Origin: Verrucomicrobia bacterium IMCC26134
Lineage (GTDB): Bacteria; Verrucomicrobiota; Verrucomicrobiia; Opitutales; Opitutaceae
NCBI GenBank assembly: GCA_000972765.1
Contig: CP011265.1
Location: 2,341,501 to 2,405,500 of the forward strand
Reading direction: 5' to 3'
DNA length: 64,000 bases
Every line of letters starts with the position of its first letter. The first letter of the stretch is position 1. The position numbers were made by a program, and so were the translations under genes. Positions 34,015 through 39,692 of this stretch are shown here, one piece after another. Under the pieces are notes generated by a model. The model did not search any database. It saw only the letters and a program-made list of their open reading frames with translations, and was not told the DNA's origin.

Positions 34015-34608
34015 ATGGTAAATGCCCGCATCCACGAACAATTCACCTTTCTTATTGAGGCCCTGCGGCTCTCCGAGGTGCTGCGCCAAACCCTGCTCCC
34101 GACCAGCCGGAGGCGCGAGAACGACGCCGAACACTCGTGGCACCTGTGTCTGATGGTCATCGTGCTGGCAGAGCATAGCAACGTGCCAATCGATCTGATT
34201 AAAGTCCTTAAAATGCTCGTGATACACGACTTGGTAGAGATAGACGCGGGCGATACCTACGCCTACGACACCGCCCGTATGGCCAACCAGCACGAACGCG
34301 AGGCCCTCGCCGCCGAACGCATCTTCGGCCTGCTGCCTTCGGATCAGGGCGCGTCGCTGCGCGCTTGCTGGGACGAGTTCGAGGCGCGCCAGACCCCCGA
34401 GGCGAAATTCGCCGCCGCGCTCGACCGCCTGCAACCGGTTTTACTCAATATCCTTACCGACGGGGTCAAATGGCGCGAACACGGCGTCACCCTCCCCAAA
34501 GTCCTCGCCCGCAACGGCCACGCGATCGAGGGCTCGGCTGCGGTCTGGACCTACGTGCGCGCTTTGCTCGACGAGGCGGTGGAAAAAGGCTCGCTCCCTG
34601 CTGCCTGA
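34015..34608 (+). CDS. HD domain hydrolase, YfbR/HDDC2-like 5'-deoxynucleotidase
   Basis: About 197 residues from the ATG at 34015 (MVNARIHEQFTFL), chosen over an upstream in-frame TTG because family similarity begins here. The metal-binding HD pattern is clear: RRENDAEHSWHLCLM, VIHDLVEIDAGDTYAYD, and a late Asp in AALDRLQPVLLN. Relatives remove phosphate from deoxynucleoside monophosphates. It converges with the EIIA-diadenylate cyclase gene, whose stop is 24 bases away, so the pair is not an operon. A link to c-di-AMP turnover is possible but unsupported. Confidence 0.85.
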   Translation: MVNARIHEQFTFLIEALRLSEVLRQTLLPTSRRRENDAEHSWHLCLMVIVLAEHSNVPIDLIKVLKMLVIHDLVEIDAGDTYAYDTARMANQHEREALAAERIFGLLPSDQGASLRACWDEFEARQTPEAKFAAALDRLQPVLLNILTDGVKWREHGVTLPKVLARNGHAIEGSAAVWTYVRALLDEAVEKGSLPAA

Positions 34609-34632
34609 GGTTACGACTACTCCGACTCCGAA

Positions 34633-36003
34633 CTAAGCCGCACCTGGATTCAGTTTTCGCTCGGTCAAAGGCAGCATAACGCCACGACGGAAGAGCGTCA
34701 CCTGGCCGGTGCTCGACGAAACCACGATGGCCACGCATTCGGTGGCCACGCTCACGGCGGCGGCGGCGGCATGCCGGCTGCCCAGGCCGCTTGGCAGGGC
34801 GTGCTCGCTGTCGGCCGCCTGCAAGAGGCTGCCGGCGGAGACGACGACACCGTCACCGCGGATCACGAACGCGCCGTCGAGAGAGGAAAACTCCTTCACC
34901 GTCTCGTCCATGAAGGGATTGAGAATATTACGATCCTCCTCTTTGTATCCGTAAAATGGATTTAGAACCAGCGGCTTGGTCAGACGCTCCACGCTGGAGG
35001 TGTCGCCAACCACGAAGAGACAGCCGACCGGCCGGCCCTCACGGCCCTCGACCCCGAGCTCCATCGCCACGCCGATGACACGCTCGAGCACCTCCGGTTT
35101 CACGTCGTGCGGGAGTAAGTCGGCGTGACCGCCGAGCAGGGTCTGGAACTCGCGTTCCACGTCCACGATGACGACGGTGTCAAACTGGTTGCTGCCCGCG
35201 ATCCCGCCCACGCAGCAGATGCGATCGTTAAAGTTAATGATGCCGCGCGTTAGAGCCACGAACATCGCGCTGCGCAACTGCGCCATGCGCTGGGTCGAGA
35301 AAGAGCGGACCTGCACGACGTCGAAATGCCTCGCGTTCGCATCGTCGGCATCGCCGGGATCAACGTGGTTGCGCGTCACCAGGATGGTTTTCGTCTTGGG
35401 AAACCAGGCGCCCGGCTCGATGCCTCCGACGAAGGCGTCGCCGAAGACCATGATGGCGCTGCAGGAGGCGCCGCGCGCGACCCGGTCGGCCTCGCGAATC
35501 ATGAGGCGGTTGATCCGGTTTTGCTGGGCCTGCACCGGACGTGCGAGGATGCCTCCCACGCCGGCGATGAGCCGCCTGTGCAATTCAGCCAGAGTAGGCG
35601 CGGTGACAAAGCTGGAGACGAGGTCGGCCTCCTTTACCAGGCGCGCCACGGTGGCGAGCACTTGCAGATAATCGTGTGCTCGTTCGTCAGCCAGCAGCAG
35701 GATGACGAGATGGACCTTCTCCCCGTCCATCGTGCCGTCATGCACGATGCCGTCGCGACTGCGGCCGACGGCCAGGACGTAGCGGCGCGGCATTTTCACC
35801 CGCACGTGCGGGAGGGCCACGCCGTTGCCAAGATAGGTCGTCATCGTGCTTTCGCGCTGCATCAAGCTGCGCAACAAGGTGTCGGCCTTCAGATCCGGAA
35901 AACTGGCGGTGGAGGCTGCGATCAGCTCGGCAAAGGCCGACTTTAAATCCCGGCTCTCGAGCTCGATGATGCGCTGACGGGCTAGGTGGCGGTCGAGACG
36001 CAT
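34633..36003 (-). CDS. Three-domain protein: PTS EIIA (type 2) / PK-C-like / DisA_N diadenylate cyclase
   Basis: A 456-residue soluble protein. Residues about 5-150 are a type-2 PTS EIIA (PtsN-like) domain keeping the phosphoacceptor site: GVALPHVRVKMPRRY with His66. Residues about 155-285 (MIREADRVARG, KTKTILVTRNHVD) resemble the pyruvate-kinase-C-like domain that precedes the cyclase in archaeal DacZ proteins. Residues about 300-445 are a DisA_N cyclase domain with the DGA motif (Asp376-Gly377-Ala378) and SRHAAAAAVS (Arg410-His411), where a second Arg is usual after RH; here it is Ala. It probably makes c-di-AMP under control of phosphorylation at His66. It follows nuoA on the strand after 56 bases. 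Confidence 0.85.
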   Translation of the reverse strand: MRLDRHLARQRIIELESRDLKSAFAELIAASTASFPDLKADTLLRSLMQRESTMTTYLGNGVALPHVRVKMPRRYVLAVGRSRDGIVHDGTMDGEKVHLVILLLADERAHDYLQVLATVARLVKEADLVSSFVTAPTLAELHRRLIAGVGGILARPVQAQQNRINRLMIREADRVARGASCSAIMVFGDAFVGGIEPGAWFPKTKTILVTRNHVDPGDADDANARHFDVVQVRSFSTQRMAQLRSAMFVALTRGIINFNDRICCVGGIAGSNQFDTVVIVDVEREFQTLLGGHADLLPHDVKPEVLERVIGVAMELGVEGREGRPVGCLFVVGDTSSVERLTKPLVLNPFYGYKEEDRNILNPFMDETVKEFSSLDGAFVIRGDGVVVSAGSLLQAADSEHALPSGLGSRHAAAAAVSVATECVAIVVSSSTGQVTLFRRGVMLPLTERKLNPGAA

Positions 36004-36059
36004 GAGCGGTGGCGGGTGGCGGACAATCCAGTCCGCGTGACTTTATCGGCGGGAACGAT

Positions 36060-36440
36060 TCACTTCTCCCAGTCGAGGGCGCCCTTTTTCACCTCGTAGA
36101 ACAAGCCCAGCACCAGCACGCCGAAGAAAAACCCGATCGGAGCGAGAATGCTGATGTGGTTGGCCAGAAAATCGCGGTAAATAAACGCCCAGGGGATCAG
36201 GAAAACGACCTCGATATCGAAAAGGATAAACAGCATCGCGGTCACATAAAACTTAACCGAGAAACGCGTGTGAACGAGACCCTCGCTCTTCACGCCGCAC
36301 TCATAAGCGGTGTCGGTGATGGCGGTGCTCTTCTGTTTGCGCTGCCCGAGCAGATGGCTGATGCCGACGATCAACACCGCCAGACCGGCGGCAAGGATCA
36401 CTTGGATGAGAAAGGGGAGGAAATCAGCGGCGGTGGTCAT
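36060..36440 (-). CDS. nuoA: NADH-quinone oxidoreductase subunit A
   Basis: A 126-residue membrane subunit of respiratory complex I with three helices. The conserved loop YECGVKSEG and the helix-2 run KFYVTAMLFILFDIEVVFL with its acidic residues identify NuoA clearly. Length is normal. It stands alone: upstream on the strand is a DUF362-like gene and downstream is the EIIA-cyclase gene, not nuoB, so the usual nuoA-N operon order is broken at this point. The other subunits must lie outside this window. Confidence 0.95.
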   Translation of the reverse strand: MTTAADFLPFLIQVILAAGLAVLIVGISHLLGQRKQKSTAITDTAYECGVKSEGLVHTRFSVKFYVTAMLFILFDIEVVFLIPWAFIYRDFLANHISILAPIGFFFGVLVLGLFYEVKKGALDWEK

Positions 36441-36529
36441 GATTCAGGAAAGTTAAAAAAGGAGGGAGCGGGCGCGCGGTGACAAGGGTATTTAGCCGAT
36501 GACGAATATCGAAGAACAGCCACGGGGGG

Positions 36530-37627
36530 TCAGTGGGTTGCGACCGGCACGGATTCGACGCGCACGGGCGCATCCCCGAAACGCTTGCCCAGCCCAAGCA
36601 CCTCGGCGAACTCGAGGGTGCGAATCTCATCACTCAAAGGCTCGAACCCGGCGGCTTTGCGGGCGGAGTTGATGCGCTCTTCCATCAAGGCATCCATGCG
36701 CACCGGATCGCTGCCGAGCCAGAGACGGGGTTCACCCCGGGTGTAGAGCGAATTGTAGGCGGGTCCGCCCACGAACTGCCATTTCTCGAGACTGGCGAGG
36801 GTAAAGGCCCAGGTCTGTCGCAGTTCGGGTATCGCTGCCATCTCGGCCACCGCGGCTGGAGCGCTGCGGTTGGACCGGAAAAAACGGGAGGTGTTCGAGG
36901 CGTTCCAAAGGGTGGCGTTGACCAAGGCCCCGTTAACACCCAGTGCCTCGTGGTCGGTGTAAACCGGCAGGTTGATCCAGAAATCGGCATCGAGAAACAA
37001 AGGCGTCGCGAGGAAACTTTTACGGTCGGCGTCGTGGTCAACGACTTTGCCGAGCCCGTCGAGCTCGGCGTCACCCCGCGCCACAAAATTGGCATCCTGA
37101 CGACCGGATAAAATCGGATCAAAACGCGACGGCAAGGGGCTGTCATAATACCAAACCGCATCATAAAAACGACCGGACTCGAGCACGAAAAAGGGGTGCC
37201 CCTCAAAGGGCGCCGGTATCCGGGGATCAGTCGGAAGGTAGCCCGTGAGGCGCAGGCGAAACTGATTTAGACCCACGAGGAAAATATTTTCGCGGACGTA
37301 GCCGCGCCGCACCAAAGCCTCGATCACCGCATGCACCAAAGGCTGGGGGGTGGCCATGCCGGGGCCGGAGTCGGCGTAGAGCTTGAGCCCAACCTTGGCT
37401 TTTTCACCAGGGATCAGGCGGCGGCCCACCTGCTGTTCAAAGGCCCGGAAAAGCGCCTCGACCGCAGGCGCGTAATCGGCGGTCGCCAACGAGGTGCCCG
37501 GCGCGGGCGCGGGCAACATCGCCTCCCACAAGCCCGGCGCCGGCCCCGAGGCCGCGCTGACGCCGGTTACGGAAGCCATAACGGACAGCAGGATTGCGAA
37601 AGATAACAGAAAAACACGGAGCAACAT
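36530..37627 (-). CDS. Secreted DUF362-like protein without cysteines
   Basis: About 365 residues from the ATG at 37627, chosen because it opens a signal peptide (MLLRVFLLSFAILLSVMA... to about residue 26); the frame is open for 61 more codons that look non-coding. The body resembles DUF362: GPGMATPQPLVHAVIEALVR, then DFWINLPVYTDHEALGVNGA with LVNATLWNASN. Many DUF362 proteins carry ferredoxin-type cysteine clusters, but this one has no cysteine at all in the mature part. Function unknown; probably periplasmic. It is divergent from dnaG and lies 89 bases before nuoA. Confidence 0.7.
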   Translation of the reverse strand: MLLRVFLLSFAILLSVMASVTGVSAASGPAPGLWEAMLPAPAPGTSLATADYAPAVEALFRAFEQQVGRRLIPGEKAKVGLKLYADSGPGMATPQPLVHAVIEALVRRGYVRENIFLVGLNQFRLRLTGYLPTDPRIPAPFEGHPFFVLESGRFYDAVWYYDSPLPSRFDPILSGRQDANFVARGDAELDGLGKVVDHDADRKSFLATPLFLDADFWINLPVYTDHEALGVNGALVNATLWNASNTSRFFRSNRSAPAAVAEMAAIPELRQTWAFTLASLEKWQFVGGPAYNSLYTRGEPRLWLGSDPVRMDALMEERINSARKAAGFEPLSDEIRTLEFAEVLGLGKRFGDAPVRVESVPVATH

Positions 37628-37730
37628 AAAGGCAGAGCCCTTGACAGACCCTGAAGCCGACCGAAAGTGCAAATCCGCTTTCTCTTTTTTGTCGCCGCGC
37701 TTTTTGTCCCAACCACCCGTCTCCGCCCCC

Positions 37731-39692
37731 ATGCCGCGAATCAAAGACAGCAGCAAACAGGACCTTAAGCTGCGCATCAACATAGTCGATGTCATCGCGC
37801 GTGTTGCCACCCCCCGTCGCGCCGGCGGCAGTCGATTTAAGGCGCTCTGCCCCTTCCACCAGGAAAAGACCCCTTCCTTTCACTTCGACGCCGACAAAGG
37901 CTTTTACAAGTGTTTCGGCTGCGGCAAGTCGGGCGACATCTTCACCTTCGTGCAAGAGACCGAGGGACTCACCTTCAACGAGTCCATGGAAGCGCTCGCG
38001 CAACGCTTCGGCATCGCCCTCGAATACGAGGAGGGCGGAGGAGGTCCTTCACGCGAAGAGCGCTCGCTGCGTCAGGAGTTATTCGATCTCCATGAGGCCG
38101 CCACCGATCACCTTCACCAGACCTTCAAGGGCCCGGGCGCCCATGGAGAGTGGATGCGCAGCTATTGGATCGAGAAACGCCGCTTCACCATGGAACTCGC
38201 CGACGAGTTCAAGATCGGCCTCGCCGACCCCACCGGCAGCGGCCTCGGCGCCGCTTTGATGAAGAAAAAATTCTCCGAAGCCGCCATCCGCCAATGCGGC
38301 CTGTTTTACCTTTACGACGATGCCCTGCTCACGCTCGGTGCGCTGCGTCCGCGCTTTCGCGGCAGACTCATGATCCCCATCCGCGATCATCAGGGCCGCG
38401 TCACCGCCTTCACCGCACGCCAGACCGACCTCACGCCGAAGGACGACAACTCCTACGAGGCCAAATACGTCAACTCGCCCGAGACCCCCATCTTCAGCAA
38501 GAGCAATCTCCTCTTCAATCTGGACCGCGCCCGCAGCCACGTCGGCGAAGGCAAGCCCTTCGTCATGGTCGAGGGCCAGCTCGACGCCCTCCGCTGCTGG
38601 TCCGTCGGCCTGAAGACCGCGATCGCCCCCCAGGGCACCTCCATCACCGAGGGCCAGCTGATGCTGATGCGACGCTACCAAACGCAACTCGAGTGCTTCT
38701 TTGACAGCGACAGCGCCGGCCAAAAAGCCGCCCTCCGCCTGCTGCCCATCGCACTCAAAACCGGTATCGAGGTGCGCTTTTTGACGCTCGAGGGCGCCGG
38801 CAAGGTGGACCCCGATTTACTCTTCCTTGAAAAAGGCCTCGCCGGCTACGACGAGGTCAAGAAAGGCTCCTTCGGCGGCATGCAATTCATGCGCCGCTAC
38901 GTCCTGCCCGATACCCGCACCGCCACCGCTGAGCGCACCCAGCAAGCCGTCCGCGCCATTTACGAGGTCGTCGCCTCCGCTGAATCCGAACTCCTGCGCA
39001 AAACCCTGCTGGGTGAAATCGCCCCCGCCCTCGGTGCGCTGCAAATCACTCCCGACGTCTTCGAACGCGACTTCGCCCGTTTCCTTGCCAACGGCGGTCG
39101 CGCCGCCTCAGGCCCTTCGACCCAAAACTCCGTCAACAACACCTCGTCCGCTGCGTCCTCGTCGTCCGCCTCCTCGCGCCCCCCCTCCGACTCAGGCGAG
39201 TCGTTCGAAACCGCCTCAGGTGCCCCGTCCGCCCCCGCCGACGACGCCGACAGCCCCGAACACCACCTCCTGCTGCTCCTTCTCCACTTCGAGCCCTTGG
39301 GTAAACCCCTCGCCGCCGCCCTACCCCACGAATGGATCGACGCCCGGCGCCCCTCCGGCACACTTTTGAACCGCTTTCTCGCCGAGTTTGCCGAGGACCA
39401 GTGGCCCGGCCGCGACAATCTCGATCCCCTGCTCGAAACCGATGCCGAACGCGCTTTGGTGACATCCCTCCTTTTCGAGACCCCCAGCATCGAGGCCCCC
39501 TTCAAGGTGGCGGTCGAAGGTCTGACCCACCTGCGTCTTCGCGCCCTCACCCCCCGTATACGCCAGATAGACCTGGCCCTCGCCCAAGCCGGCACGGATA
39601 ACACCATTGACCCCGGCACGCTTCTTAAGGAACGCTCAGACCTCCAGCGCCTGCTGCGTTCCCCCCTTGCACTCGCCCCCGGCGCTGCGTAA
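37731..39692 (+). CDS. dnaG: DNA primase DnaG
   Basis: A 653-residue primase from the ATG at 37731 (MPRIKDSSKQDLKLRINIVD), where family similarity begins; the frame is open further upstream. The zinc domain has Cys40, His43, Cys61 and Cys64 in CPFHQEKTPSF and YKCFGCGKSGD. The TOPRIM core has VMVEGQLDALRCW and ECFFDSDSAGQKAA. A Ser/Pro-rich linker of about 45 residues (nucleotides 39100-39250) separates it from the C-terminal DnaB-binding region, which is longer and more variable than in E. coli. It makes RNA primers at the replication fork. Next to rpoD it forms a dnaG-rpoD pair as in the classical macromolecular synthesis operon, here without rpsU. Confidence 0.95.
   Translation: MPRIKDSSKQDLKLRINIVDVIARVATPRRAGGSRFKALCPFHQEKTPSFHFDADKGFYKCFGCGKSGDIFTFVQETEGLTFNESMEALAQRFGIALEYEEGGGGPSREERSLRQELFDLHEAATDHLHQTFKGPGAHGEWMRSYWIEKRRFTMELADEFKIGLADPTGSGLGAALMKKKFSEAAIRQCGLFYLYDDALLTLGALRPRFRGRLMIPIRDHQGRVTAFTARQTDLTPKDDNSYEAKYVNSPETPIFSKSNLLFNLDRARSHVGEGKPFVMVEGQLDALRCWSVGLKTAIAPQGTSITEGQLMLMRRYQTQLECFFDSDSAGQKAALRLLPIALKTGIEVRFLTLEGAGKVDPDLLFLEKGLAGYDEVKKGSFGGMQFMRRYVLPDTRTATAERTQQAVRAIYEVVASAESELLRKTLLGEIAPALGALQITPDVFERDFARFLANGGRAASGPSTQNSVNNTSSAASSSSASSRPPSDSGESFETASGAPSAPADDADSPEHHLLLLLLHFEPLGKPLAAALPHEWIDARRPSGTLLNRFLAEFAEDQWPGRDNLDPLLETDAERALVTSLLFETPSIEAPFKVAVEGLTHLRLRALTPRIRQIDLALAQAGTDNTIDPGTLLKERSDLQRLLRSPLALAPGAA

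What the first reader, a model, noticed from the sequence alone, without database searches (positions are those of the whole stretch)
34633..36003. PTS EIIA fused to a DacZ-like diadenylate cyclase
One protein joins a PtsN-like EIIA domain that keeps its phosphoacceptor His66, a PK-C-like middle domain as in archaeal DacZ, and a DisA_N cyclase domain with the DGA motif. EIIA-Ntr proteins and c-di-AMP are both established controllers of potassium transport and osmotic balance in different bacteria, so a direct fusion suggests phosphorylation state sets c-di-AMP synthesis. The RH motif is followed by Ala where Arg is usual, which may change activity or ATP binding. I cannot say whether this architecture has been described experimentally.
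Basis: partly seen in the sequence, partly recalled or inferred. Interest (0 to 1): 0.8.

Follow-up and report, generated by a model that had tools for sequence, protein, structure and literature searches.

The report
Sugar-phosphorelay domain fused to c-di-AMP synthase
The only c-di-AMP-making enzyme found in this bacterium carries a phosphate-accepting domain of the sugar phosphotransferase system and a pyruvate-kinase-like domain; the arrangement is usual in its bacterial order and probably already catalogued, but it could tie energy metabolism directly to a salt-balance signal and is easy to test.

Summary
Models match EIIA-Ntr, the C-terminal domain of pyruvate kinase, and CdaA/DisA. It is the only DAC match in the 4.0-Mb genome, which also holds EI, HPr, HPr kinase, a PgpH-type protein and a Na+/H+ exchanger with two TrkA_C domains. 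Of 52 sampled order genomes, 47 carry this cyclase, 43 of them with the EIIA part. The Ala after RH is lineage variation; two haloarchaeal DacZ also lack Arg there. DAC motif residues are kept in 63 of 63 relatives. The phosphoacceptor His is kept in 34 of 39 genomes with HPr but 4 of 8 without (Fisher p 0.033, not corrected for relatedness; exceptions both ways). Best reading: the order's usual c-di-AMP synthase, with a removable PTS-phosphorelay input and a PK_C-fold second input. Phospho-control is inferred, not shown. A 'DacD' class with representatives from this group was in print by 2019: new member of a known kind.

The parts
34633..36003 (-). whole gene: EIIA - DacZ_P (PK_C fold) - DAC diadenylate cyclase, 456 aa
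   Evidence: Met1 invariant in 24 of 24
35572..35958 (-). PTS_EIIA_2 domain, residues 16-144; phosphoacceptor His66 at 35806-35808
   Evidence: Pfam 69.1 bits; EIIA-Ntr fold, VIA Z 21.7 to 1a6j_A, rmsd 1.7, 146 aligned
35140..35520 (-). DacZ_P domain, residues 162-288, pyruvate kinase C-terminal (PK_C) fold
   Evidence: Pfam 87.1 bits; domain model best match 5wrp_A residues 345-472, VIA Z 13.5, rmsd 2.9, 120 aligned; the 50 rows shown are all pyruvate kinases
34678..35055 (-). DAC (DisA_N) catalytic domain, residues 317-442, with DGA (376-378), RH (410-411), SSS (429-431)
   Evidence: Pfam 76.4 bits; model matches 2fb5_A Z 16.4, DisA 9y4s_D Z 15.6, CdaA 8c4n_B Z 15.5; D376, G377, R410, H411, S429 kept in 63 of 63
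36060..36440 (-). nuoA (NADH-quinone oxidoreductase subunit A), directly upstream on the same strand (56 bp between), possibly co-transcribed
   Evidence: PF00507 101.7 bits; same strand, upstream, in 98 of 104 other loci with the cyclase gene, median gap 64 bp

Best explanation
The protein is the sole c-di-AMP synthase found in this bacterium and the usual one of its order. Its DAC domain, of the DacZ lineage, makes c-di-AMP from ATP. Upstream of it sit two metabolic inputs. The N-terminal EIIA domain takes a phosphoryl group on His66 from PEP through EI and HPr; HPr kinase can throttle that flow by phosphorylating HPr on Ser. The middle PK_C-fold domain is a candidate pocket for a phosphorylated metabolite or nucleotide. 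The phosphorylation state of EIIA (high when PEP is plentiful relative to pyruvate) most likely shifts how DAC domains pair or how active they are, so that c-di-AMP follows carbon/energy status. c-di-AMP is removed by the PgpH-type phosphodiesterase and probably acts on ion transport, for instance the Na+/H+ exchanger with two TrkA_C domains. Shown here by sequence and model: domains, folds, residues, genes of the donor chain, single DAC match, PgpH-type gene. Inferred: enzyme activity, phosphorylation of His66, its effect and the sign of that effect, the metabolite, the effector.
For: Three domains above curated cut-offs. Only DAC match in the genome; in 22 of 24 order genomes of the phylum sample it is the single DAC match, the other two having none. 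DAC motif residues D376, G377, R410, H411, S429 kept in 63 of 63. DAC groups with two haloarchaeal DacZ apart from 30 phylum CdaA-like proteins (support 0.815), and H. volcanii DacZ is an active Mn-dependent enzyme (PMC6741144 abstract and passages). EI, HPr and HPr kinase genes are in the genome; EI reads TSHA and HPr reads GIHARPA and GKSIMG (site labels recalled). His66 invariant in 24 of 24 aligned relatives; kept in 34 of 39 HPr-positive against 4 of 8 HPr-negative order genomes, and in family f81 the HPr-positive member keeps His while the HPr-negative one has no EIIA part. PgpH-type domains present. A physical DAC-PTS link has been seen elsewhere: PTS proteins are among co-purified partners of S. 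mutans DacA (PMC13289029, passages seen).
Against: No biochemical data. His66 is Tyr in G290, G311, G321 (one family) and Ser in G146 despite HPr; G323 has HPr but no EIIA part; four genomes without a detected HPr keep His (G293, G295, G304, G310). The association is weak (p 0.033) and counts relatives, not independent events; EI was not checked across the order. The CdaA metal ligand Glu is Ser here. The relative placement of domains in the full model is poorly determined (pTM 0.52), so no route of control can be read from it. No c-di-AMP riboswitch match in the genome.
Confidence: 0.6

Rival explanations
1. The EIIA domain does not control the cyclase; it is a docking module, like free PtsN binding KdpD (or TrkA, recalled), that brings c-di-AMP synthesis to a partner such as a transporter, with phosphorylation regulating the partner.
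For: Unphosphorylated PtsN1 of Sinorhizobium binds KdpD and contributes to low-potassium adaptation (PMC9239096 abstract). Residue 112, Tyr in 56 of 64 rows, aligns with a His of solved PtsN that I recall as the second active-site His, as if passing the phosphate on were not needed; but the genome's separate EIIA has Tyr there too, so this is not special to the fusion.
Against: Among the window's genes that recur beside it in 104 other loci none looked like a transporter to me; only two of those neighbours were searched against Pfam. The partner is unknown.
Confidence: 0.2
2. The EIIA domain is a structural relic that only helps oligomerisation; the PK_C-fold domain is the real sensor.
For: His66 replaced in three families of the sample (Tyr, Ser, Cys) and the EIIA part absent in four genomes while the DAC motifs stay intact. 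The EIIA domain is less conserved than DAC (11 of 129 against 35 of 126 invariant positions in 24 rows).
Against: The middle domain is less conserved still (3 of 127 invariant). His66 and Pro65 are invariant in 24 of 24, hard to explain for a mere scaffold.
Confidence: 0.15
3. The DAC domain has lost catalysis and serves as a c-di-AMP or ATP sensor.
For: The CdaA metal-binding Glu is replaced by Ser (61 of 63) or Thr (2 of 63).
Against: Two haloarchaeal DacZ proteins have Ser at the same place, and H. volcanii DacZ, of that family, makes c-di-AMP. It is the only DAC match in a genome that keeps a PgpH-type protein. D376, G377, R410 and H411 do not vary in 63 rows.
Confidence: 0.05

Closest known systems
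DacD class of diadenylate cyclases (named in Braun et al. 2019, PMC6741144, citing Corrigan & Gruendling 2013 and Commichau et al. 2018)
   Same: The five representatives listed are Lacunisphaera limnophila, a Puniceicoccaceae, a Coraliomargarita, a Verrucomicrobia and an Opitutae bacterium (figure legend); a Lacunisphaera MAG found here has a 68% identical protein over residues 1-456 (L122).
   Different: Probably no difference; that DacD is defined by an EIIA domain is my recollection of the 2013 review, not read here.
DacZ (H. volcanii) and DacY/CdaZ (M. jannaschii)
   Same: PK_C-fold domain before a DAC domain (PMC6741144 section 3.1); two haloarchaeal DacZ share GLGxRH followed by non-Arg, and Ser in place of the CdaA metal Glu; NCBIfam DacZ is the best NCBIfam match (130 bits).
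   Different: Extra N-terminal EIIA domain; DacZ equivalog cut-off (430 bits) not reached.
EIIA-Ntr (PtsN)
   Same: Fold (1a6j_A Z 21.7) and phosphoacceptor His with its GVALPH context.
   Different: Fused to a cyclase; PtsN equivalog cut-off not reached (43.8 of 138.7 bits); Tyr112 where the aligned solved PtsN have His.
CdaA
   Same: DAC domain fold and core motifs.
   Different: Pfam reported no CdaA-type N-terminal membrane domain; 34.6 bits against a 188.8-bit cut-off; separate branch.

Membership tests
DAC (PF02457) diadenylate cyclase | profile match above curated cut-off | tested here: met
   76.4 bits against 27
DAC (PF02457) diadenylate cyclase | DGA and RH active-site motifs and the phosphate-binding Ser | tested here: met
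   D376, G377, R410, H411, S429 in 63 of 63; roles from PMC7288161 section 7
DAC (PF02457) diadenylate cyclase | c-di-AMP synthesis | not testable with these tools
   needs an assay
DacZ_P / DacZ superfamily | DacZ_P profile before the DAC domain | tested here: met
   87.1 bits against 27.4
DacZ_P / DacZ superfamily | pyruvate kinase C-terminal fold of the middle domain | tested here: met
   model mce126773aad7, 5wrp_A Z 13.5; the 50 rows shown are all pyruvate kinases
DacZ equivalog (NF041371) | score above 430 bits | tested here: not met
   130.1 bits: relative, not an archaeal-type DacZ
CdaA (TIGR00159) | score above 188.8 bits | tested here: not met
   34.6 bits
CdaA (TIGR00159) | Glu ligand of the metal (Glu124 in L. 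monocytogenes CdaA) and Arg after RH | tested here: not met
   Ser431 and Ala412; two haloarchaeal DacZ have Ser and His there
EIIA-Ntr / PTS_EIIA_2 (PF00359) | profile match, fold and phosphoacceptor His | tested here: met
   His66 in 24 of 24
EIIA-Ntr / PTS_EIIA_2 (PF00359) | phosphorylation by HPr/NPr | not testable with these tools
   EI, HPr and HPr kinase genes present
PtsN equivalog (TIGR01419) | score above 138.7 bits | tested here: not met
   43.8 bits
DacD class | architecture that defines the class in print | tested here: inconclusive
   only the list of representatives could be read; Galperin 2023 is not held and the 2013 review was not looked up by id

The most novel reading that the evidence does not exclude
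A whole bacterial order runs its usual, mostly only, c-di-AMP synthase as a direct effector of the PTS phosphorelay: PEP/pyruvate status, carried on EIIA His66, and a PK_C-bound glycolytic ligand jointly set c-di-AMP. Lineages that lost HPr or changed the His form a natural set of switch-off mutants.
Probability: 0.45. Interest if true: 0.75.

Novelty: new member of a known kind. Interest (0 to 1): 0.45.

Why it matters
What signals control c-di-AMP synthases is, to my knowledge, largely open. Here the input is covalently attached and recognisable (a PTS phosphoacceptor and a pyruvate-kinase-type domain), the enzyme is the only DAC match in the genome, and nature supplies relatives with His, with Tyr/Ser/Cys at that place, and without the domain. 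That makes PTS control of c-di-AMP directly testable with one purified protein.

Tried and rejected
Catalytic death from RH-Ala: rejected, because the Arg is not a listed ATP ligand and two haloarchaeal DacZ have His there. Chance or mis-assembled fusion: rejected (the 80 kept genome-contig loci all match at least residues 3-449 at 63-95% identity; 41 of 52 order genomes full length). c-di-AMP riboswitch regulon: no RF00379 match in the own genome and no Rfam family at gathering threshold in the window. Promoter/terminator scan of 34500-37900: no sigma-70-like site (0.8 expected) and 6 terminator-like sites (3.9 expected), not informative. Literature: for searches I saw only listings (search 78 held no paper); no listed title or abstract start describes an EIIA-DAC fusion. 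PMC6741144 and PMC7288161 do not contain the word EIIA. The most relevant review (Galperin 2023, J Bacteriol 205:e0002323) is not held, and Corrigan & Gruendling 2013 was not looked up; I recall that such architectures are catalogued there, so no claim of absence from print is made. VIA on the full model covered the middle domain in one of 50 rows (5wrp_A, Z 13.9); it was therefore folded alone. Why G303 and G102 lack the protein was not followed up.

Full report
What is there. window:34633-36003, minus strand, is one uninterrupted gene of 456 codons plus stop. Pfam finds PTS_EIIA_2 at residues 16-144 (69.1 bits), DacZ_P at 162-288 (87.1 bits) and DAC at 317-442 (76.4 bits), each with a cut-off near 27. 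A model from 24 relatives (mean pLDDT 79.0, pTM 0.52) matches EIIA-Ntr (1a6j_A, VIA Z 21.7, rmsd 1.7, 146 aligned) and DAC proteins (2fb5_A Z 16.4; DisA 9y4s_D Z 15.6; CdaA 8c4n_B Z 15.5) (Foldseek). Folded alone, the middle domain (pLDDT 78.8, pTM 0.73) matches pyruvate kinase C-terminal domains in all 50 rows shown, best 5wrp_A Z 13.5, rmsd 2.9, 120 aligned, 8% identity (Foldseek best E 4.7e-6). The relative placement of the domains is not reliable at pTM 0.52.

How widespread. It is the only DAC match in the 4.0-Mb single-contig genome. In 145 genomes of the phylum, 141 have a DAC match. Of the 24 belonging to the order, 22 have exactly one, each of this long type (50-82% identical to P0001 over about 450 aa, or P0001 itself), and 2 (G102, G143) have none. 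In the rest of the phylum sample the DAC mostly scores higher and lies in a shorter frame; the 30 best-scoring ones (L002-L031) were compared and are CdaA-like. Exceptions in that rest are G004 (long type only, 33% identical), G035 (long type, 31%, plus another), G114 (an 818-aa frame matching only in its C-terminal part, plus another) and G078 (a second, divergent DAC). DacZ_P occurs in 41 of 43 order genomes and 5 of 245 others (the order genomes without a match, G102 and G143, head its sorted list, 222 further genomes without a match are not listed). A differently drawn order sample with many more families (52 genomes) has the cyclase in 47: 41 full length (two of them, G293 and G298, with a TAA inside the match, whose open frames still cover profile positions 1-445 and 1-443), one split by a contig end (G297), one with a degenerate N-terminus (G314), four without the EIIA part (G306, G318, G319, G323). 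Of the other five, G292, G302 and G303 gave no match, G300 only a 29-residue fragment at a contig end, G102 only a separate EIIA. The window therefore most likely comes from an Opitutales bacterium (inference from these titles).

Catalytic residues. In L. monocytogenes CdaA the listed active-site side chains include Asp of DGA, Thr-Arg-His of GTRH, Ser122 and the metal ligand Glu124 (PMC7288161, section 7 read). Here Asp376, Gly377, Arg410, His411 and Ser429 are kept in 63 of 63 DAC domains; the residue after RH is Ala in 50, Arg in 1 and others in 12; the residue at the Glu124 position is Ser in 61 and Thr in 2 (the 64th row is the EIIA half of G297). Two haloarchaeal proteins annotated as DacZ (L198, L199) read GTRHH and LSES at these places, and H. 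volcanii DacZ makes c-di-AMP with Mn2+ only (PMC6741144, abstract and passages seen). In a FastTree of 56 DAC domains, 24 family members plus the two DacZ form one group apart from 30 phylum proteins with RHR, taken as CdaA-like (support 0.815; DisA and other classes were not included). So Ala412 is no warning sign, and an active, perhaps Mn-dependent enzyme is expected.

Is there a donor for His66? The genome has one HPr match with GIHARPA and GKSIMG readable in its frame, one EI (590 aa, three EI domains, TSHA readable), one HPr kinase and one separate EIIA with ALPHAR. The second PEP-utilizers_C match, in a 955-aa frame, looks like pyruvate phosphate dikinase (recalled, not tested). The site labels for HPr and EI, and the name PgpH used below, are recalled, not from a call. 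Sugar-specific EIIB/EIIC were not searched.

A natural experiment. Searches examined the same 52 order genomes for HPr (44 have it) and for this protein (47 have it). Among the 47, 39 have HPr: His66 is kept in 34, Tyr in 3 (G290, G311, G321, all family f64), Ser in 1 (G146), EIIA part absent in 1 (G323). Eight have no HPr match: His kept in 4 (G293, G295, G304, G310), Cys in 1 (G314), EIIA part absent in 3 (G306, G318, G319). Fisher p = 0.033. Sixteen further aligned rows, from genomes whose HPr status was not examined, were left out of this table: 15 have His and G172 has Ser. The table leans towards the His being held by the phosphorelay, but the counts are not independent events, several genomes are incomplete, EI was not checked, and the HPr-positive exceptions argue that in some lineages the domain works without phosphorylation or has decayed. 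In one family (f81) the contrast is clean: G307 has HPr (a lower-scoring match, 54.9 bits) and His, G319 has neither an HPr match nor the EIIA part. In all these genomes the DAC motif residues stay intact, so EIIA is an accessory input, not a requirement for keeping the cyclase.

Surroundings. nuoA lies directly upstream on the same strand in 98 of 104 other loci that hold the gene (median gap 64 bp; 56 bp here). These 104 loci mix two collections and may hold near-identical species. A conserved 426-aa protein without a Pfam match is further upstream in 77 of 104; a 732-aa and a 601-aa gene (DnaG- and RpoD-like by my reading, not searched) are divergent. Only window genes between 24 and 48 kb were used as queries, and only nuoA and the 426-aa protein were searched against Pfam. 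Elsewhere in the genome are a protein with 7TMR-HDED, 7TM and HD domains, i.e. PgpH-type, and a Na+/H+ exchanger with two TrkA_C domains; TrkA_C of KtrA is listed as a c-di-AMP receptor in PMC7288161 (passage seen). No RF00379 riboswitch was found.

Interpretation. The best-supported account is a c-di-AMP synthase with two metabolic inputs, PTS phosphorylation and a PK_C-fold ligand domain, serving as the order's usual DAC. The PK_C fold is where pyruvate kinase binds fructose-1,6-bisphosphate (PMC6741144 discussion passage), which suggests but does not show a glycolytic ligand. That EIIA-Ntr can govern potassium systems is supported by the Sinorhizobium work (abstract read, PMC9239096), that c-di-AMP governs osmotic balance by PMC6741144, and PTS proteins are among the co-purified partners of S. 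mutans DacA (PMC13289029, passages seen); the link between them in this protein is inference. Novelty is limited: Braun et al. 2019 list a DacD class with representatives from this group, Pfam already holds DacZ_P, and I recall that Galperin 2023 classifies DAC architectures in detail; that paper is not held. What this work adds is the order-wide survey, the active-site comparison with DacZ, and the uneven co-retention of His66 with HPr.

Noticed in passing
window 36060-36440 (-): A nuoA gene sits directly upstream of the cyclase gene on the same strand, conserved in 98 of 104 other loci. Whether other nuo genes lie nearby was not examined; why nuoA travels with a c-di-AMP synthase is unexplained.
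   Followed up: partly
window 36530-37810 (-): Conserved 426-aa frame upstream of nuoA (77 of 104 loci) with no Pfam match.
   Followed up: no
G290, G311, G321 (L173, L182, L189); G146, G172 (L192, L196): Lineages in which the EIIA phosphoacceptor His is Tyr or Ser while the cyclase motifs are intact: possible constitutive or rewired forms.
   Followed up: partly
G102 and G143: Two nearly complete order genomes (99% and 98%) with no DAC match.
   Followed up: no
L056 (G078 C1:265004-265363): A second, divergent DAC (E 1.3e-26), probably in a 498-aa frame with a membrane-like N-terminus; no match to this family by blastp.
   Followed up: no
L034 (G114): 818-aa frame with DacZ_P and DAC at its C-terminus but no EIIA match; about 520 N-terminal residues without a Pfam match, possibly an over-long frame.
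   Followed up: no
own genome C1:1313944-1314411 (L144, L145): Na+/H+ exchanger with two TrkA_C domains, a candidate c-di-AMP receptor.
   Followed up: partly
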